This document shows, piece by piece, positions 54,562 to 64,000 of a stretch of DNA of 64,000 bases. Numbering within the stretch: position 1 is the first letter of the stretch; each line of letters begins with the position of its first letter. The notes under the pieces are model-generated. The model saw only the letters and a list, made by a program, of their open reading frames with translations, was not told the origin of the DNA and ran no database searches. The DNA comes from Jannaschia sp. W003 (GTDB lineage Bacteria > Pseudomonadota > Alphaproteobacteria > Rhodobacterales > Rhodobacteraceae): assembly GCF_025144335.1 (NCBI RefSeq), contig NZ_CP083539.1, forward strand, positions 118,501-182,500. Reading direction: 5' to 3'. Made by a program: the position numbers and the translations under genes.

Positions 54562-54641
54562 GTGAGCGCCCGCATCATTCCGGCCGCCACCGTCTTCCCG
54601 ATGGAGCCTCGTTCACTTTCGCCCCACGGACGGGGTGCCCA

Positions 54642-54677
54642 ACGCCAACGGCCGCCCCAGGGGGCGGCCGTTGGCGT
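54642..54677 (-). terminator. Displaced terminator hairpin of the rRNA operon
   Basis: A perfect 17-bp stem (left arm ACGCCAACGGCCGCCCC) closes over only two bases, 13 bases beyond the 3' end of the truncated tRNA copy. Before the element inserted, it lay directly downstream of tRNA-fMet on the minus strand, so it is most simply the original terminator of the rrn operon. No T-run follows. Confidence 0.6.
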
Positions 54678-54686
54678 CGATCTGTG

Positions 54687-54739
54687 GATTTGGTTGCGGG
54701 GGTAGGATTTGAACCTACGACCTTCAGGTTATGAGCCTG
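54687..54739 (-). repeat. attL: 3' fragment of tRNA-fMet
   Basis: 53 bases identical to 61931-61983. It includes 49 bases of tRNA-fMet from the anticodon stem through the CCA end (54691-54739, minus strand). The identity stops sharply on both sides (G versus A at either edge). Confidence 0.95.
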
Positions 54740-54828
54740 GTTGGGGCATGTTCGTAAGGTGTTGTGCCCGGGGCGCTTTCTCCGCATTGTGACGCGATAC
54801 GAGTGTGTTACGGGAGACACGAGCCGCT

Positions 54829-56028
54829 ATGCCGAGACCTTCGATGCCACCCGATGCGCACGAGACCACGGACACAGCACGGACACCGCCCGCCCGTGTC
54901 CGCATCTCCGACAAGCTCGCCCGCAGCCTGGAGCCGCCCGCCTCGGGCAACCGGATCGTGTACGACGACACCGTCCGAGGCTTCGGCCTCCGGGTGACGG
55001 CTAAGGGCGCCCGCTCCTTCGTGCTGAACTACCGCATGAAGGGCCGCGAGCGGCGTATCACTATCGGCCAGTACCCTGCGTGGTCTGTCGCCGCCGCCCG
55101 CAAGCAGGCCGAGGACTACCGCCGCCGGATCAGCTTGGGCGACGATCCTCTGGAGGAACGGCAAACCCTCCGTGCCGCCCCTACGGTCGCGGACCTGTTC
55201 GAGCGCTACGCGGCGGAGCACCTGCCCACGAAGGCACCCCGCTCCGCTTCCGACGACCGGGCCATGTGGGCGAAGGACATTCTGCCCGCCCTGGGGCCGA
55301 AGAAGGTCGCGGACCTCACCTCGTCCGACTGCGATGCTCTGCACCGGGCCATCTCGCGAGACCGCCCGACGCGGGCCAACCGAGTGATGGAGGTGCTGCG
55401 CAAGGCGCTCAACCTCGCGATCCGCTGGGGCTGGATCGAGCGCAACCCGGCCTCGGGCGTGCGGCGCAACGTCGAGAAGCGGCGCACGCGCTACCTGACC
55501 CCCGAAGAGATCGCGCGCCTGCGCGCCGCCCTCGATGCCCACCCGCAGCAGGCCTCGGCCGACGCGATTCTGTTCCTTATGCTCACGGGCTGCCGCCGGG
55601 GCGAGGCGCTGGGGGCGACGTGGGACCAGTTCGACTTGCCCCGCCGCGTCTGGACCAAGCCCGAGGGGACGACGAAGCAGCGCCGCGTTCACCGCGTCCC
55701 TTATTCCGAAGCGGTGGCCGCCCTCTTGGAACGCAGGCGCGCCGAGGCTGGAGGAGCCTTCGTGTTCACCGGAAGCCTCGGCGCGCCGTTGGTCGACGTG
55801 AAACGGACCTGGGCCAGCGTGTGCCGCACGGCGGAGCTCGATGACGTGCGGATGCACGACCTGCGCCACACCTATGCGAGCCTTCTGGCCTCGTCGGGCG
55901 CCTCGCTGCCCGTGGTGGGTGCCCTACTCGGGCATAGCCAGCCGCAGACCACCGCGCGCTATGCGCATCTGTATGACGACACGTTGCGGTCGGCGACGCA
56001 GTCGGTGGCCGATGCGATCCACCGCTAG
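54829..56028 (+). CDS. Tyrosine-type site-specific integrase (P4-like)
   Basis: 399 residues from ATG 54829, with GGGAG upstream; a GTG at 54805 is an alternative. An N-terminal arm-binding domain of the DUF4102 type (DDTVRGFGLRVTAKGARSF, ITIGQYPAWSVAAARK) is followed by a core-binding SAM-like domain and the catalytic domain with Arg256 (TGCRRGEALG), His343 and Arg346 (HDLRH), His369 (GHSQPQTT) and Tyr378 (ARYAHL). It should carry out integration and excision at the tRNA-fMet site, 90 bases away. All catalytic residues are present, so the enzyme looks functional. Confidence 0.93.
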   Translation: MPRPSMPPDAHETTDTARTPPARVRISDKLARSLEPPASGNRIVYDDTVRGFGLRVTAKGARSFVLNYRMKGRERRITIGQYPAWSVAAARKQAEDYRRRISLGDDPLEERQTLRAAPTVADLFERYAAEHLPTKAPRSASDDRAMWAKDILPALGPKKVADLTSSDCDALHRAISRDRPTRANRVMEVLRKALNLAIRWGWIERNPASGVRRNVEKRRTRYLTPEEIARLRAALDAHPQQASADAILFLMLTGCRRGEALGATWDQFDLPRRVWTKPEGTTKQRRVHRVPYSEAVAALLERRRAEAGGAFVFTGSLGAPLVDVKRTWASVCRTAELDDVRMHDLRHTYASLLASSGASLPVVGALLGHSQPQTTARYAHLYDDTLRSATQSVADAIHR

Positions 56029-56341
56029 CGCTTTGTGACGCCATTGGGTGCCGCGAGATGTCAGGGGCGCAATTCGTGCTTGCACGCCCCGTTGTCGGTC
56101 GTGTTCATCAACGGTGCAGCGAATGGCACATGAAATAATCAGCATCACGCATATAAATCAAACTGCAGAACGTAATACACGCACAGACGACATCCGATAC
56201 ACAAAGCAAACCGCAGACAAAGCAACGATACGCACCTGAATTAGATGACGAGAACCGCTGCATTCCATCAATTCGGGTGCTGCGGAGCCGGCCTTGAGGG
56301 TGCGGCTCTCTAGGCACCTCCCCCCCCGTGAGAGGTTCCGC
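56029..56341. other. Intergenic region between integrase and AlpA-like gene
   Basis: 313 bases with no supportable gene. An inverted repeat GGGGCG...CGCCCC (about 56067-56091) could end integrase transcription. From 56120 to 56240 the sequence is AT-rich with many CA/GA-rich stretches, the probable promoter of the AlpA-rep unit. Confidence 0.4.
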
Positions 56342-56545
56342 ATGATAACGAAGAGCGTGGCAGACCGGCTCTGCCCGAAGGAAGCTGCCGACTACATCGG
56401 CCTGAGCGTGCGCACGCTCGCCCGCTACCGCGCCGAAGAGGTCGGCCCCCGCTGGCTGAAGGTCGGCCGCTCGATCCAGTACCGGCGCGCGAGCATCGAC
56501 GCCTGGCTCCTGGCGCAAGAGCAAACTCCCAAACGCAACGTGTGA
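56342..56545 (+). CDS. AlpA/excisionase-like DNA-binding protein
   Basis: 67 residues from ATG 56342, with GAGAGG upstream. The sequence (CPKEAADYIGLSVRTLARYR, then GPRWLKVGRSIQYRRASIDA) is the winged-helix MerR/AlpA-type fold of excisionases: a helix-turn-helix followed by a basic wing. In P4-like elements AlpA activates integrase expression or excision. Here it stands between the integrase and rep genes, as expected for the switch that sends the element out of the chromosome. Confidence 0.85.
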   Translation: MITKSVADRLCPKEAADYIGLSVRTLARYRAEEVGPRWLKVGRSIQYRRASIDAWLLAQEQTPKRNV

Positions 56546-56664: not shown

Positions 56665-57825
56665 ATGGACGTGCTCTATTCGGGGTTCGACGGTCTCGAC
56701 CTCGCCCTTCGGTTCAACATCGGCGACGACTTCGCCGCCTACCTCGACGCCAAGCAGAAGGAGGCTGCAGAGGCGCGGCACGATATCGGCGGCATGTGGG
56801 CGGACCAGTGGTTCACGGTCGCCTCCTCCGGCGGACAGGGCGGCTACGCGTTCCGCCTCGACACCGGGCCGACCGGGGAGACGTGGTTTCTCAAGCGGCC
56901 CCACGCCAGCGATCCGTGGGGTGTTCGTGTCTCGGCCAAGTCTGCCGCCCTTCTCGCGCATGGCCTGGGCGGATGGCAGCGGCGCATGGAGGCGGTGGCA
57001 CGGGCGTTTGGCGCGAGCATGGAGCCTGGCACCACCTCGATCGGCCGTGTCGATGTCGCCGTCGACATTCTCGCCCCGGACTTCGTGCTCGATGACGACG
57101 CCTTCGTCATGCACGCGCGTACGAACCGGAAGGCGATCAAGGAGATCGTGCAGACGAACGGCCGCTCAGGGCGGCTCACCTCCGTCACGGTGGGCAAGAT
57201 GCCGGGGCGGCAGGTGATCTTGTATGACAAGCGCGAAGAGGTCACGGTGAAGCGCAAGGTGGAATGGCACCTGGCTTGGAACGCCCGACGGACGGCGCTG
57301 GGACTGCCGCCCCTCGACCTTGCGGACCCTGCCGCCTCCCGGGTATGGCGCGTGGAAGTGCGCGCGGCCAAGCAGCACCTCAAGAAGCAGTGGCACGTGA
57401 CCGGATGGGGCGACCTTCACGCGATGCTCTCACCGATAATCGGCGATGCGATGGACCGAGTACGGTACTGCGCCCCCTCCTCGGACACCAACCGCGCGCG
57501 TTGGCCGACGCACAAGCTCTGGACCCTCGCCAGGAACACACTCCTCGACCACATCGTGGATCAGCCCCCGTGCCTCGACCCCGAGACGATCCGTGAGGAA
57601 ACGAAGGCGCAGAAAATCGAGCTGCTGATGAAGCAAAGCCTCGGATGTCTAACGGGCGTGGCTGCGCTCGAACGGGTCAGCGCGGTAGGCTATGACAGGT
57701 TTCTCGACATCATCGGAAAGCGGCTCGCTACGGCGTCGCGGCACCATCCCGATGCACCGGATGTGAGGTTGCGACAGGCTGGCGAGCGGTATGCTCGACT
57801 GACCGGCCGGGATGAAGTCGGCTAA
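56665..57825 (+). CDS. Replication initiation factor (Rep_trans-like)
   Basis: 386 residues from ATG 56665, with GAGGA upstream. The central part, with SIGRVDVAVDIL, GRSGRLTSVTVGKMPGRQV, ILYDKREEVTVKRK and VWRVEVRAAKQHLKK, fits the replication initiation factor domain found in Rep proteins of rolling-circle plasmids and of integrative elements. The candidate nicking Tyr is in VILYDKR (near residue 190). It would let the excised element replicate as a circle. Base composition is intermediate between the host and the following AT-rich genes. Confidence 0.8.
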   Translation: MDVLYSGFDGLDLALRFNIGDDFAAYLDAKQKEAAEARHDIGGMWADQWFTVASSGGQGGYAFRLDTGPTGETWFLKRPHASDPWGVRVSAKSAALLAHGLGGWQRRMEAVARAFGASMEPGTTSIGRVDVAVDILAPDFVLDDDAFVMHARTNRKAIKEIVQTNGRSGRLTSVTVGKMPGRQVILYDKREEVTVKRKVEWHLAWNARRTALGLPPLDLADPAASRVWRVEVRAAKQHLKKQWHVTGWGDLHAMLSPIIGDAMDRVRYCAPSSDTNRARWPTHKLWTLARNTLLDHIVDQPPCLDPETIREETKAQKIELLMKQSLGCLTGVAALERVSAVGYDRFLDIIGKRLATASRHHPDAPDVRLRQAGERYARLTGRDEVG

Positions 57826-57911
57826 CGGCCCATAGCGGCCATTGGGACGTGAAGTCTTCGCCATAGCGCTGCTTCGCGAGAGCGGACAATCGATCAGGCT
57901 GTTGGTTCCTA

Positions 57912-57997
57912 CTGCTAAAGCGTCGAGATAAGATTGCGAAACCGATAGCTCAATGGCGATTCGTCAATGATATCGGTCACTGCTGCTAAAGCGTCGA
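57912..57997. other. Hairpin flanked by 15-bp direct repeats upstream of the reverse transcriptase
   Basis: CTGCTAAAGCGTCGA occurs at 57912-57926 and again at 57983-57997. Centred between them is a stem ACCGATA / TATCGGT (57941-57947 and 57971-57977). The whole 246-base gap 57826-58071 has no gene. Such an ordered structure next to a defence-type reverse transcriptase could be the template non-coding RNA, or an operator bound by a dimer. No T-run follows. Confidence 0.4.
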
Positions 57998-58071
57998 AGT
58001 TGAGGCAGGCTCACAAGGTGACTATCGTCGTTGCTGGCAAGGGCCATGCATTGCATTAGAGGATTTTAATA

Positions 58072-59709
58072 ATGGTCACCAAAGCCGAGTTTAAAAAGGC
58101 GGCCAAACTTGCCGTTCGGAACGTCATTAAACACGGCGATACAGACATCTTTCCTTTTCCGTTTGAAAATCATGCATTTTTTGACAAGGAAATAGAGGCA
58201 GTTGAGCTAGTGACTGAGTATGACGAGAACTTTGAGCAGTACTTGAATCAGTTCCCGCCAAAGAATGTTAGTTCCTTGACCCCCGTCACATATTCTGGCT
58301 TCCGATGGGCCACACAAATTGACCCCTTGTGGAACGCACATTTTCTTGCTTCAGTTGCAGCAATTGGTAAATCGATTGAGCGAGCAAGGATTGATCGTGA
58401 TAATGAGGCGGTATTTTCCTACCGGTTCGAACCAGACAAAGAGACTGGGGACGTATTCTGCCGTGAGGTGGGTTGGCTGCAATTCATGAAGAGGTCACTC
58501 GAACTGGCAGAAATTCATCCATTTACTGTCATATGTGACATTTCAGAGTTCTATCCTAGGCTAGGTCACCATCGGCTTGAAAACGCTCTGAGGCAAGTCG
58601 CTGGAGAGACCCCGTATCCAAAAAGAATAATGAGCTTTCTGTCAAACTTCTCCAATACAAACTCATTTGGCTTGCCTATCGGCGGGCCAGCAACAAGGCT
58701 ACTCTCTGAGATTACTATCAACCAGGTTGATCGGCTTCTCCAATCGAAAGGCATAGTATTCACCAGGTTTGCAGATGATTATCACCTATTCGCTGACACG
58801 AAAGAAGACGCCTACCGGAACCTAATATTCCTTTCTGAGAAGCTATTCATAAATCAGGGACTTACCCTGCAGAAATCAAAGACTAGGATTATGAGTTCGG
58901 CAGAGTTCAAAGCCACAAGTCCAATCAAGGATGAGGAAAAGCCCGAAGAGGAGCAAGCCGCCGAAGCGGCGATCAATCACTCACATAGTGCCCTGATGCG
59001 CTTTTCGCTTAGATTCGATCCCTATTCTCCAACTGCAGACGATGACTACGAAGCACTCAAAGCCGAGGTCCGAAAATTTGATATCATAGGCATGCTCAAA
59101 GAGGAGTTGGCCAAGAGCAGAGTTCACACGTCTCTCGCACGGAAGATTATCTCCGCAATAAAGTTTTTGGAGGGGAAGTCAAAGCAGGATGCGGTATTGT
59201 CTGTGATGGACAACTGCGATGTCCTATACCCGATTTTCTCTTCGGTACTTATGATGATCGATGATCAATTTGATAGTCTTGAAGAGGATACACAAAACGC
59301 CGTGTTGGCCAATATCCAATACCTTATTGATCAAGACTCCCACGTCTTCAGAGTGGACATACATTTGAGCTTCGCGATCCGTGTCTTAGCCCATAGCAAT
59401 ACTCCCCAAATCCAGTTTTTGCTTCAGAAGTTGTTTGATAGTCGACCTTCGGAACTTATTCGACGGGACATCATTCTAATAATGGCTCGCTGGGGTGAGT
59501 GGTATTGGCTTTCCGATCTTAAGAATCGGTATCGAGAGTTGAGCGCCCCCGAGAGGCGAGCATTTATTGCTTCATCGTTCATCTCGAAGGACGAAGGCAA
59601 GCATTGGCGAGACCATATGAAAAGAGAGTTCGATCCGTTTGAGGAGCTGGTACTGAAGTGGGCCGGTGAGAAGATGCAGGCTCAACAGAACTGGAGTGTA
59701 CCGTTGTGA
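58072..59709 (+). CDS. Reverse transcriptase of the Abi/UG (defence-associated) kind
   Basis: 545 residues from ATG 58072, with AGAGGA upstream. The palm motifs are present: CDISEFYPRLGHHRL (Asp156, with Phe-Tyr), FGLPIGGPATRLLSEI (199-214) and FADD (233-236, for the usual YxDD), then LQKSKTRIM. No thumb VTG motif of retrons or maturase domain of group II introns is visible. Residues about 330-545 are all-helical, like the helical repeats of AbiK and the UG reverse transcriptases, which protect against phage. The gene is far more AT-rich than the host, overlaps the next gene by 4 bases (GTGA) and sits in a mobile element, all fitting an imported defence system. The subclass cannot be fixed by eye. 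Confidence 0.85.
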   Translation: MVTKAEFKKAAKLAVRNVIKHGDTDIFPFPFENHAFFDKEIEAVELVTEYDENFEQYLNQFPPKNVSSLTPVTYSGFRWATQIDPLWNAHFLASVAAIGKSIERARIDRDNEAVFSYRFEPDKETGDVFCREVGWLQFMKRSLELAEIHPFTVICDISEFYPRLGHHRLENALRQVAGETPYPKRIMSFLSNFSNTNSFGLPIGGPATRLLSEITINQVDRLLQSKGIVFTRFADDYHLFADTKEDAYRNLIFLSEKLFINQGLTLQKSKTRIMSSAEFKATSPIKDEEKPEEEQAAEAAINHSHSALMRFSLRFDPYSPTADDDYEALKAEVRKFDIIGMLKEELAKSRVHTSLARKIISAIKFLEGKSKQDAVLSVMDNCDVLYPIFSSVLMMIDDQFDSLEEDTQNAVLANIQYLIDQDSHVFRVDIHLSFAIRVLAHSNTPQIQFLLQKLFDSRPSELIRRDIILIMARWGEWYWLSDLKNRYRELSAPERRAFIASSFISKDEGKHWRDHMKREFDPFEELVLKWAGEKMQAQQNWSVPL

Positions 59710-60071
59710 TCGACGCTGCAACCTTCTCGTCAACGTACAACGCTTTTTGGGCTGAAGCCGCCCCTATGCTGGAGCATTTCACCCGACGATTGAACCTAGA
59801 GCATCTAGATCGGTTCGATACACCCATGAAATATGATAAGACCGGTCGCAAGGCACTGATCGCTGAATTTGGCTTCTCTATGATGGTAGAAATTATCCGA
59901 TCTGCAGGGAATTCGGGAGATCGAGCAGAATTACAGGAAAACGCATGGAACGATACGAAGCGTCGGCTCAGACCTTTTCTTGGACAAGGCGTCGATCTTG
60001 ATACGCCTTTGCAGCACAGCGAGAAAGCCGAGGCCGCAGAGATTGAGAGAAGACTGGTCGAGTTTTTTTAG
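59706..60071 (+). CDS. Helical protein of the reverse-transcriptase cassette (perhaps N-terminal half of a split gene)
   Basis: 121 residues from GTG 59706, overlapping the reverse-transcriptase stop. The protein looks fully helical (FSSTYNAFWAEAAPMLEHFT; KALIAEFGFSMMVEIIR) and has no known motif. It ends at a TAG after a run of seven T. The reading frame continues without further stop through five codons into the nuclease-like ORF at 60087, so this may be the front part of one protein of about 248 residues broken by one amber codon, or two genes in operon order. Confidence 0.6.
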   Translation: MIDAATFSSTYNAFWAEAAPMLEHFTRRLNLEHLDRFDTPMKYDKTGRKALIAEFGFSMMVEIIRSAGNSGDRAELQENAWNDTKRRLRPFLGQGVDLDTPLQHSEKAEAAEIERRLVEFF

Positions 60072-60086
60072 GGAGCTAATGTACCA

Positions 60087-60410
60087 GTGAAAACACGTCC
60101 GTTGTTCAAAGGATGTGGATTTGTAGACGCATCAGAGGGCGACATCTTGACCAAATCGACGCTGTTCGAAGTCAAGACCGTCGATAGATCGTTTAGAGGA
60201 GCTGACCTGAGACAGCTTTTAACCTACACAGCTCTGAACTCAGCATCGCGTGATGCTGAAATCTCTTCCGTTGGGTTGGTGAACCCTAGACGGGGGGTAT
60301 CATTCGAAGTGTCTGTCGGTCAGCTTTGCATCGATATCTCTGGTCGTTCCGCAGAAGATCTGTTCGCAATGATTGTGCAAGTTCTTTCGAGCGGTGAAAT
60401 CTCCCGCTAG
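60087..60410 (+). CDS. PD-(D/E)xK nuclease-like protein of the cassette
   Basis: 107 residues from GTG 60087, with GGGAGC nine bases upstream. The core FKGCGFVDASEGDIL...TLFEVKTV...DLRQLLTYTALN has the layout of a PD-(D/E)xK nuclease: Asp19, Glu28-x-Lys30 and the following Arg42-Gln43 on a helix. GLVNPRRG follows as the next strand. At about 107 residues it is small for a complete nuclease, which supports it being the catalytic half of a longer protein started at 59706 (same frame). No family name is certain. Likely role: effector nuclease or DNA-handling partner of the reverse transcriptase. Confidence 0.6.
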   Translation: MKTRPLFKGCGFVDASEGDILTKSTLFEVKTVDRSFRGADLRQLLTYTALNSASRDAEISSVGLVNPRRGVSFEVSVGQLCIDISGRSAEDLFAMIVQVLSSGEISR

Positions 60411-60841: not shown

Positions 60842-61621
60842 TCATTCCTCGACGGTCTTCAAAATGACCTCTGCGGCTTCCGTCGGGCGGTCCCATTGCG
60901 GGAAGTGACCGCATCGCTCGAACCAATGGAGCTGGGCGGTAGGGAAAGCTGCTTGAGCACGTTCCGCTTGCCTAGGCAGCAGGAGACGGTCGTTACGACC
61001 CCATCCAATCGTCACGCGGCCCGGAGGTGTGGCCGTCCCCTCCTGCAACGGACCGTTCGCCAACTCGCGCAGCATCGCGTCGAAGACTTCTGTCCCGGCT
61101 ATGGCCGTCAGCTCTTTCTGGACCAATTGGGGATCGAGGGTGCCGGGTCTCGCCGATAGTTGCATCAGAAGGGCCGTCCGCGCGGCCCTGTTCTGCGACA
61201 ACGTCGGAATGCGCGACCGTAAGCGGCGTACCAGCCGAACCGAGGCGGACAGCGTGTAGCGGAACCAAGCCGTTTCCCAGCCCCGCCAGAAACCGCCAGG
61301 ATCATAGGCGACCGTGTGGCCGCCGACGCCCCGCCGCGACAATTCCAGAACCAAACGCGCGCCGACGGAACTGCCGGCCGTGTCAACTTCTGTCAGCCCA
61401 TTCAAGTCGATGAATTGCTCGAGCGCGTCCGCATAGGCGGCGATTGTTTGGGGCCCCGAAAGCGCCGGGGACTTGCCATGCCCCGGCAGATCGATCAGCA
61501 CGATCTCGCGCGCATGGGATAGCATCGGGACGATGTTGTCCCATGACCGGACACTTCCGCCGAGCCCGTGAACCATAAGCAAGGGCCGTCCCGCACCATG
61601 ACGTTCGCAATTTAATTTCAT
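60842..61621 (-). CDS. Alpha/beta hydrolase
   Basis: 259 residues from ATG 61621, chosen because the fold starts right there (MKLNCERHGAGRPLLMVHGL). HGLGGS forms the oxyanion region; the nucleophile elbow GSSVG has Ser85; Asp211 is in GWGRNDRLLL and His239 in ERCGHFPQW, completing the triad. Family members are esterases, lactonases, haloperoxidase-like enzymes and others, so the substrate is unknown. It is cargo of the element, reading back toward the reverse-transcriptase cassette, with host-like GC content. Confidence 0.85.
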   Translation of the reverse strand: MKLNCERHGAGRPLLMVHGLGGSVRSWDNIVPMLSHAREIVLIDLPGHGKSPALSGPQTIAAYADALEQFIDLNGLTEVDTAGSSVGARLVLELSRRGVGGHTVAYDPGGFWRGWETAWFRYTLSASVRLVRRLRSRIPTLSQNRAARTALLMQLSARPGTLDPQLVQKELTAIAGTEVFDAMLRELANGPLQEGTATPPGRVTIGWGRNDRLLLPRQAERAQAAFPTAQLHWFERCGHFPQWDRPTEAAEVILKTVEE

Positions 61622-61882
61622 ACAGTAACAACGGCCAGAACTTCCTTTGGTTTCACTATCAGCTGTCAGGACATTGCATCGGCGTCGCAATCCGTCGGAC
61701 GACTCCGTGTAGCTTCCTCGAATTGCGACCGCTTTGTGGGCACCGCTCGCTCTCGTGACAGGTGCGGCGAACGACCGCTCACCGCCCTCCTCACACGCCT
61801 GCTGCGCGCGCACGTTCTGTGTTCGGAACGAGCCTATCTACATCGCCCTCGCGGACATCTTACGGACACGGCGTCCCAGCGC

Positions 61883-61930: not shown

Positions 61931-62011
<81 letters not shown>

Positions 62012-62084
62012 ACGGTAGGGCTTGGGTAAGCCCTGGGTGTCGGTGGCATCGTCATAGAGATACGCGTTCCGGGCCCTTGCTAGG

Positions 62085-62199
62085 TTTGGCGATGACCTAC
62101 TCTCCCACGTCTTAAGACGCAGTACCATTGGCGCTACGGCACTTAACGGCCGAGTTCGGGATGGGATCGGGTGTTTTGCTCGCGCTATGATCACCAAAC
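62085..62199 (-). rRNA. 5S ribosomal RNA
   Basis: About 115 nt. On the minus strand it begins GTTTGGTGATCATAGCGCGA and contains CCCGATCCCATCCCGAACTC and TGGGAGAGTAGGTC, all standard 5S segments; the two ends pair (GGTTTGG with CCAAACC). Ends are good to a few bases. Confidence 0.95.
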
Positions 62200-62274
62200 C
62201 GAGCAAGGGTCCGGAGGGTCCAAGTCTTGTGCACTTCGTATGCTTTCGAGCGGAAGCCTTGCTTCCACTGGATC

Positions 62275-64000
<1,726 letters not shown>

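What the first reader, a model, noticed from the sequence alone, without database searches (positions are those of the whole stretch)
58072..60410. Reverse transcriptase with a nuclease-like partner: candidate new anti-phage cassette
Seen directly: a 545-residue protein with reverse-transcriptase palm motifs (CDISEFY, FGLPIGGPATR, FADD) and a helical C-terminal part; a 4-base overlap with a helical ORF; then an ORF with Asp...Glu-x-Lys...Arg-Gln typical of PD-(D/E)xK enzymes. Known: Abi/UG reverse transcriptases form many DRT defence types, often with helical C-terminal repeats and partner genes. Inferred: this RT plus helical/nuclease partner is a defence unit, and I cannot match the three-part order to a DRT type I know with certainty.
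Basis: partly seen in the sequence, partly recalled or inferred. Interest (0 to 1): 0.85.

Follow-up and report, generated by a model that had tools for sequence, protein, structure and literature searches.

The report
DRT8 anti-phage cassette on mini-element
The sequence holds a known kind of bacterial anti-virus system (a reverse transcriptase with a DNA-cutting partner, called DRT8), here with the partner gene interrupted, riding on a small mobile element whose relatives often carry other anti-virus systems in the same slot.

Summary
The reverse transcriptase (RT) and nuclease-like partner are real but match a catalogued system, DRT8. The RT scores 540 bits against PADLOC Drt8, the next family 112. 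The 'helical ORF' and 'nuclease ORF' are halves of one gene, PADLOC RTasPDDEXK, in one frame, split by TAG at 60069-60071. In 8 of 8 genome-contig relatives it is one open frame. This copy is recently broken or makes a two-piece nuclease.

The partner's predicted fold resembles Cas4/Dna2/RecB-type nucleases. The RT's 15 best solved matches are DRT4, UG15, DRT6, AbiA and Abi-P2.

What I did not find in print is the carrier: a 7,244-bp insertion at a tRNA-Met gene with integrase, excisionase-like and Rep_trans-like genes and 53-bp repeats; an unoccupied paralogous site exists. Related Rep genes occur in 21 of 248 genomes of the host's family, its own included. In 10 of 15 delimited relatives the cargo slot strongly matches other defence proteins: 17 of 39 scanned cargo ORFs at E<=1e-20, against 1 of 76 flanking chromosomal ORFs. 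Closest published analogue: PICMI satellites of Vibrionaceae. Transfer and defence are untested.

The parts
54687..54739 (.). attL: 53-bp direct repeat, copy of the tRNA-Met 3' end
   Evidence: exact repeat of 61931-61983; unoccupied paralogous site C1:26029-27500 in the same genome matches 54641-54739 (97%) and 61931-63356 (100%)
54805..56028 (+). tyrosine integrase, 407 aa
   Evidence: Phage_integrase E 2.6e-24, Arm-DNA-bind_3 E 1.4e-19
56294..56545 (+). small helix-turn-helix protein, excisionase-like
   Evidence: HTH_17 E 9.8e-9; TIGR01764 excise E 0.0057, below its cutoff; phrog_66 excisionase and transcriptional regulator E 1e-7
56665..57825 (+). Rep_trans-like replication initiator (or relaxase), 386 aa
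   Evidence: Pfam Rep_trans E 0.012, below cutoff; the L002 relative, 32% identical, scores E 5.7e-6, also below cutoff
57904..57997 (.). two imperfect 23-nt direct repeats, 71 nt apart, just downstream of rep (iteron-like; function unknown)
   Evidence: family D5
58072..59709 (+). Drt8 reverse transcriptase, 545 aa; catalytic Asp codons 58537-58539, 58774-58776, 58777-58779
   Evidence: PADLOC Drt8 540 bits; D156, D235, D236 invariant in 11 aligned Drt8 RTs; positions
59706..60071 (+). N-terminal half of the RTasPDDEXK partner gene (helical part)
   Evidence: profile positions 1-114, E 4.7e-19; helices in the model of the L002 relative
60069..60071 (+). in-frame TAG interrupting the partner gene
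   Evidence: absent from 8 of 8 genome-contig relatives
60087..60410 (+). C-terminal half of the partner: PD-(D/E)XK core; Asp codon 60141-60143, Glu 60168-60170, Lys 60174-60176, Gln 60213-60215, Tyr 60225-60227
   Evidence: profile positions 121-226, E 1.3e-42; conservation; positions
60842..61813 (-). alpha/beta hydrolase inside the element, role unknown; not found near the cassette in L002
   Evidence: Abhydrolase_6 E 9.6e-20; no match in L002
61931..61983 (.). attR: 53-bp direct repeat inside the intact tRNA-Met gene
61935..62011 (-). tRNA-Met (cat), target of integration, beside the 5S/23S rRNA genes
   Evidence: ARAGORN, Rfam

Best explanation
58072-60410 is a DRT8 (defence-associated reverse transcriptase, type 8) operon: the RT followed, with a 4-base overlap, by a PD-(D/E)XK nuclease of RecB/Cas4 type. 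In this genome the nuclease gene is interrupted by one in-frame TAG. The operon is cargo of a 7,244-bp integrative element (integrase, excisionase-like HTH protein, Rep_trans-like protein) inserted at a tRNA-Met gene. Shown here: family membership, operon layout, interruption, element ends, an unoccupied paralogous site, and that related elements carry other defence systems in the same slot. Inferred: like the Abi-type RTs whose structures it resembles, the RT makes DNA without a nucleic-acid template, probably protein-primed; the nuclease acts on DNA ends. I think it more likely (about 55:45) that the nuclease normally trims the RT's own DNA product and that infection upsets this balance, as host RecBCD and ExoI do for DRT3 and DRT9, than that it is the killing effector. 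In this copy the system is probably impaired unless the two halves are both translated and assemble.
For: RT: PADLOC Drt8 540 bits against 112 for the next family; partner 67 + 144 bits to one profile. The cassette is a discrete unit: DNA similarity to L003 covers 58064-60406 and to L004 58068-60411. Only 49 bp (L004) and 37 bp (L007) separate the RT from the gene upstream, which leaves no room there for an upstream template RNA; Rfam at gathering thresholds finds only rRNA and tRNA in the window. RT model (pLDDT 77.0): ranks 1-15 in PDB are DRT4, UG15, DRT6, AbiA, Abi-P2, best E 1.1e-9. Partner model of L002's intact protein (pLDDT 88.4): best hits are the Cas4-family ACE1 (E 2.0e-5) and Dna2 (E 9.1e-4), then AddAB, MGME1 and RecBCD at weaker E; D146, E155, K157, R169, Q170, Y174 invariant in 8 aligned intact partners. 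Host nucleases restrain DRT3 and DRT9 (PMC13174585, section 9 read). Element: 53-bp exact repeats, unoccupied site, same layout and same tRNA-Met in L002 with int 35% and rep 32% aa identity although the cassettes share 87% of nucleotides.
Against: No defence activity, DNA synthesis or nuclease activity was or could be tested. Global superpositions are poor (RT ranks 1-15 TM 0.35-0.45; partner TM 0.40-0.44 with rmsd about 11 for the ACE1 hits); normalised by target length, group II intron and DGR RT domains score higher (0.56-0.63). The interrupted nuclease beside an RT that shows purifying selection (71 silent: 14 replacing codon changes on the window branch) speaks against a strictly needed guard nuclease, unless a host nuclease stands in. 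3 of 17 inspected Drt8-type loci (L041, L090, L091) show no such partner. A downstream or distant template RNA is not excluded.
Confidence: 0.85

Rival explanations
1. The nuclease is the effector: infection makes the RT produce DNA that activates it, and it destroys host or phage DNA. In this genome the effector is broken, so the cassette is a decaying remnant.
For: An interrupted nuclease beside an open RT frame is harmless if the nuclease is the toxic arm; intact in 8 of 8 genome-contig relatives. In DRT1, DNA synthesis activates a nitrilase effector (PMC13275509, passages).
Against: RecB/Cas4-type matches suggest work on DNA ends rather than general cutting; the part after the stop still shows few replacing changes on the window branch (5 of 13; P 0.007 against an equal-rates neutral expectation of 74%), so decay, if any, is recent.
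Confidence: 0.35
2. The interruption is a working two-gene split: ORF 59706-60071 and a restart at GTG 60087 give two polypeptides that assemble into one nuclease.
For: The stop falls in a loop of the model, after helix 104-122 and before strand 133-135; GGAG at 60072-60075 lies 11 nt before the GTG; the part after the stop keeps all five catalytic or motif residues.
Against: Seen in one genome only; 8 of 8 genome-contig relatives are unsplit; the 11-nt spacing is long (recalled); the GGAG is also present inside the unsplit gene of L002, so it is no sign of adaptation.
Confidence: 0.15
3. The TAG is a sequencing or assembly error and the gene is intact in the living strain.
For: It stands next to a run of seven T; only one assembly of this strain was available.
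Against: A wrong run length would shift the frame, yet both halves are in the same frame, so the error would have to be a substitution.
Confidence: 0.1
4. The carrier is an integrative and mobilizable element whose Rep_trans-like protein is a conjugation relaxase, not a phage satellite.
For: A 2017 review of such elements contains 'Rep_trans' 9 times and 'integrase' 39 times (PMC5704250, search listing only); no phage genes were recognised in the window's element.
Against: Among the loci whose gene order I inspected, one Rep relative lies in a provirus with a major capsid protein (L105); the layout is close to PICMI satellites (PMC10803314, passages).
Confidence: 0.35

Closest known systems
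DRT8 (PADLOC Drt8 + RTasPDDEXK; called UG7 in the UG/Abi classification, recalled)
   Same: RT profile, partner profile, gene order; DRT8 is described by its PD-(D/E)XK domain (PMC12596737, passage)
   Different: partner interrupted by an in-frame TAG; sits on a 7.2-kb integrative element
DRT4, DRT6, UG15, AbiA, Abi-P2 (Abi-type RTs with solved structures)
   Same: best fold matches of the RT, which has an all-helical C-terminal part
   Different: sequence places it in Drt8, not in these (Drt4 68 bits, Drt6 47.5 bits); has a nuclease partner
PICMI satellites (Vibrionaceae; PMC10803314)
   Same: about 6-7 kb, integrase plus a small regulator (AlpA there, HTH_17 here) plus one replication protein, and one slot holding defence systems including R-M, PARIS and a DRT (passages)
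   Different: primase there, Rep_trans-like protein here; integrates beside fis there, in tRNA genes here; helper phage shown there, unknown here
I55-type genomic islands of Pseudomonas and 'phage defense elements' (PMC12595487, passages)
   Same: tyrosine integrase, direct repeats, tmRNA/tRNA sites, defence cargo, no recognised transfer genes
   Different: I55-type islands share an ~18-kb region and are larger; AlpA at the far end; no Rep_trans-like protein mentioned in the passages I saw

Membership tests
DRT8 | RT matching the Drt8 profile far above other UG/Abi profiles | tested here: met
   540 bits, next family 112
DRT8 | PD-(D/E)XK partner (RTasPDDEXK) directly downstream | tested here: met
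   both halves match one profile, but the frame is interrupted by TAG
DRT8 | intact partner protein | tested here: not met
   in-frame TAG 60069-60071; the RT itself is intact, so membership of the locus stands but activity is doubtful
DRT8 | anti-phage activity | not testable with these tools
   needs plating tests
template-free Abi-type (Class 1) RTs | helical-repeat C-terminal domain and fold match to Abi-type RTs | tested here: met
   all-helical after residue 276; ranks 1-15 in PDB; class label for DRT8 itself not seen in a held paper
template-free Abi-type (Class 1) RTs | no dedicated template RNA | tested here: inconclusive
   no room upstream in L004 and L007, no DNA similarity upstream in L003/L004; downstream or distant RNA not excluded
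group II intron RT | TIGR04416 score above cutoff | tested here: not met
   49.9 bits against 300
retron | retron RT profile above cutoff | tested here: not met
   best NCBIfam retron model 38.8 bits against 235
PICMI satellite | integrase-AlpA-primase core beside fis | tested here: not met
   Rep_trans-like instead of primase, tRNA-Met site
phage satellite (general) | mobilised by a helper phage | not testable with these tools
   no relatives of Rep in 50,697 phage records or, with the two patterns used, in IMG/VR contigs

The most novel reading that the evidence does not exclude
The window's element belongs to an undescribed family of 6-10 kb integrating replicons of Rhodobacterales-type bacteria (int-xis-Rep, one exchangeable slot ending at a tRNA att site) whose cargo is mainly anti-phage systems: an alphaproteobacterial counterpart of PICMI. 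Its Rep lineage is shared with at least one provirus that has a PM2-type capsid gene. DRT8 carries its own RecB-type nuclease, so that phage inhibitors of such nucleases could trigger it.
Probability: 0.4. Interest if true: 0.7.

Novelty: new member of a known kind. Interest (0 to 1): 0.42.

Why it matters
DRT8 is one of the DRT types whose mechanism is called not yet established in two 2026 papers (PMC13213688, part 1 of 2 read; PMC13314766, passage). The RecB/Cas4-type reading of the partner gives a direct test: does the partner protect cells from the RT's DNA, as RecBCD and ExoI do for DRT3 and DRT9? The carrier, if confirmed as a family, explains how whole defence operons are exchanged: two elements with backbones only 32-35% identical at the protein level hold the same cassette at 87% DNA identity. 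It would also offer a compact place to look for new systems, since 3 of 15 delimited elements carry cargo that PADLOC does not recognise.

Tried and rejected
Group II intron and retron readings: rejected by profile scores. Three separate genes: rejected. Alternative genetic code: not considered likely; no suppressor tRNA search was run on the whole genome. Viral origin of the cassette: no relative of the RT in 50,697 phage records or, by the six peptide patterns used, in IMG/VR contigs. Upstream template RNA: no support. Corticovirus-like helper in the same family: the Thalassospira P2 capsid protein has a relative in 1 of 248 family genomes; that genome (G843) is not among the 21 with the element's Rep and its provirus region shows no related Rep, so the capsid link rests on one record (L105). 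No RT tree was built; no template-RNA covariation model was built, because no candidate RNA was found. Element membership of L005, L003 and L004 cassettes: no int, xis or rep of this type within the loci held, except a weak xis match (E 5.8e-4) 2.1 kb from the RT start in L004's flank beyond the cassette.

Weak points of the cargo count: I scanned 39 of the 48 cargo ORFs of 90 aa or more (9 short or doubtful ones left out by eye), and 76 of 89 flanking ORFs of 150 aa or more (13 left out because they overlapped rRNA or ran to a locus end). The flanking set probably contains some antisense ORFs that are no genes, which lowers its hit rate. At E<=1e-5 the figures are 22 of 39 against 8 families with one member each (at most 8 of 76). 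Two of the 15 elements (L071, L082) were delimited by the tRNA alone, without a direct repeat. Some PADLOC names among the strong hits ('beta', PDC-M50) denote candidates whose role I did not check.
Full report
WHAT IS THERE. Against PADLOC it matches Drt8 over residues 8-534 with 540 bits; the next family, RT_UG21, scores 112 bits. The two following frames are one gene. 59706-60071 matches positions 1-114 and 60087-60410 matches positions 121-226 of the same profile, RTasPDDEXK. They share a frame and are separated by TAG at 60069-60071. A search of the whole genome reports one match with '1 TAG' inside.

RELATIVES. One scan of GTDB-based genome contigs gave 8 loci with a relative of the RT (48-93% identity). 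In 8 of 8 the partner follows the RT and is one open frame of 234-241 aa. One of them, the MAG locus L007, has a TAA inside its RT instead. The plasmid collection gave 13 records; I opened 7. Four have the partner (L039, L040, L089, L092) and three do not (L041, L090, L091). With the window and L100, 14 of 17 inspected loci have it; L100 was found through the partner, so 13 of 16 is the fairer count. The Drt8 label was tested by PADLOC for 10 of these 17 RTs and was the best family each time. The partner family is rare: 4 of 385 genomes of the class (one of them, G261, a partial match, E 2.8e-12), 1 of 398 of the phylum and 4 of 292 of the order, the window's genome counted each time. Of 60 near relatives only the window's own genome holds the cassette. 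No relative of the RT was found in the phage records.

THE INTERRUPTION. Codon changes assigned to the window's branch (L002 and L005 as comparison) are 71 silent: 14 replacing in the RT, 11: 5 before the stop and 8: 5 after it. After the stop 5 of 13 are replacing, fewer than an equal-rates neutral expectation of 74% (P 0.007); the difference from the RT is not significant (P 0.12). So the stop is recent, or the second half still works. In the model of L002's intact protein (pLDDT 88.4) the break falls between helix 104-122 and strand 133-135. A GGAG stands 11 nt before the GTG at 60087.

WHAT THE PARTS LOOK LIKE. The partner model's best PDB matches are the Cas4-family proteins ACE1 (E 2.0e-5) and Dna2 (E 9.1e-4); AddAB, MGME1 and RecBCD follow with weaker values. 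Asp146, Glu155, Lys157, Arg169, Gln170 and Tyr174 (L002 numbering) are invariant in the 8 aligned intact partners. The Q-x-x-x-Y pattern is the RecB-type signature (recalled). The RT model (pLDDT 77.0) is all-helical after residue 276. Its ranks 1-15 in PDB are DRT4, UG15, DRT6, AbiA and Abi-P2; TM-scores are only 0.35-0.45, and short RT domains of group II introns score higher when normalised by their own length.

IS THERE A TEMPLATE RNA? DNA similarity to L003 begins at 58064 and ends at 60406, to L004 58068-60411; with L002 and L005 it reaches 70-85 bp further upstream and 75-140 bp further downstream. In L004 and L007 only 49 and 37 bp lie between the upstream gene and the RT. This speaks against an upstream template RNA and fits RTs that need no nucleic-acid template. 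It does not exclude an RNA elsewhere.

THE CARRIER. Exact 53-bp repeats at 54687-54739 and 61931-61983 enclose integrase, HTH/excisionase-like, Rep_trans-like, DRT8 and an alpha/beta hydrolase; the right repeat lies in an intact tRNA-Met gene. In the same genome, C1:26029-27500 shows the site without the insert: it matches 54641-54739 (97%) and runs on as 61931-63356 (100%). The insert is 7,244 bp. L002 (Amylibacter cionae, now Neptunicoccus cionae, Rhodobacterales) has the same gene order at a tRNA-Met, with int 35% and rep 32% identical, yet its cassette is 87% identical in DNA. The cassette has therefore moved between distant elements. That the host belongs to the same family as L002 follows from a match of coordinates: G1097:C4:1970-2668, 'same family', is the L002 partner gene.

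THE ELEMENT FAMILY. A profile of the two Rep proteins matches 21 of 248 genomes of the host's family (E<=1e-15), the window's included. I fetched 19 stretches. 13 show exact direct repeats of 37-51 bp; in 12 of these one copy overlaps a tRNA gene (Met, Lys, Arg, Asn or Thr). For 15 stretches (13 with repeats, L071 and L082 by the tRNA alone) I listed the cargo between rep and the far end and scanned 39 of 48 ORFs against PADLOC. 17 of 39 match at E<=1e-20, in 10 of 15 elements: AriA-like (L073), type I R-M plus PtuAB (L074), dCTPase (L075), type IIG (L076, L082), 'beta' (L077), ThsB plus PDC-M50 (L081), AbiU (L083), type III R-M (L084), Drt6 (L085). At E<=1e-5 it is 22 of 39 and 12 of 15, adding L072 and L086 (TIR plus caspase). 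L070, L071 and L080 show none. Control: of 76 chromosomal ORFs beside the same elements 1 reaches 1e-20 (SoFic); at 1e-5 eight families have one member each. Three more stretches from genomes that carry DRT8 gave HamAB (L101), type IIG (L103) and nothing (L102). In named records, Ruegeria sp. TM1040 has such an element (47-bp repeat at tRNA-Met, AAA ATPase plus an unknown), and in Indioceanicola profundi the Rep is followed by an ATP-dependent endonuclease, a UvrD-type helicase and an integrase.

WHAT IS KNOWN. A 2025 paper characterises DRT8 by its PD-(D/E)XK domain (PMC12596737, passage). Two 2026 papers call its mechanism unresolved (PMC13213688, part 1 of 2; PMC13314766, passage). A 2023 table lists a Cap17 effector for DRT8 (PMC10952713, passages), so other DRT8 forms exist. 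The classification paper that, as I recall, introduced DRT8 is not held. For the carrier, PICMI satellites are closest (PMC10803314, passages), then I55-type islands (PMC12595487, passages). Searches of the held open-licence library listed no title or abstract that describes this Rhodobacterales family; most subscription papers are not in it.

HOW IT PROBABLY WORKS. Inferred: the RT makes DNA without a template; infection lets that DNA build up or signals through it; the nuclease acts on DNA ends. Host RecBCD and ExoI restrain DRT3 and DRT9, and DRT3 cannot be kept in cells without RecBCD (PMC13174585, section 9). A RecB-type nuclease encoded with the RT would be a built-in version of that restraint. 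The interrupted copy in this window is a natural exception to that idea and keeps the effector reading open.

VERDICT. A real DRT8 locus with an interrupted partner: ordinary as a system. The defence-loaded mini-element and the RecB-type reading of the partner are the parts worth following.

Noticed in passing
L105:8001-12076 (Thalassospira marina pCSC3H3): A relative of the element's Rep (33.7% over 87%) stands in a provirus with 'major capsid protein P2' and a DUF87 ATPase: possible link to PM2-type tailless phages. One family genome has such a capsid gene but with no related Rep beside it.
   Followed up: partly
L106:8004-14574 (Indioceanicola profundi plasmid): Rep followed by an ATP-dependent endonuclease, a UvrD-type helicase and an integrase: looks Gabija-like (name recalled, not profiled) beside the same Rep type.
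   Followed up: no
L104:4833-12490 (Ruegeria sp. TM1040 megaplasmid): A named, complete example of the element: int-xis-Rep, 47-bp repeat at tRNA-Met, cargo AAA ATPase plus an unknown protein.
   Followed up: partly
L073:4817-15782: Two int-xis-rep sets in tandem within one stretch; the first is bounded by a 38-bp repeat with no tRNA found.
   Followed up: no
L007:6484-6486: The RT of this DRT8 relative (a MAG) is interrupted by an in-frame TAA while its partner is open.
   Followed up: no
L041:3968-7653 (Aminobacter plasmid): A Drt8 RT without the nuclease partner is followed by a second RT-like protein.
   Followed up: no
L100:81-1989: A divergent Drt8 RT (cut by the contig end) plus partner ends 72 bp from a tRNA-Thr gene, perhaps another element.
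   Followed up: partly
window 57904-57997: Two imperfect 23-nt direct repeats just downstream of rep, possible iterons or origin.
   Followed up: no
window 54642-54677: Perfect 17-nt inverted repeat beside attL, also next to the unoccupied tRNA-Met copy: probably the old tRNA/rRNA operon terminator.
   Followed up: no
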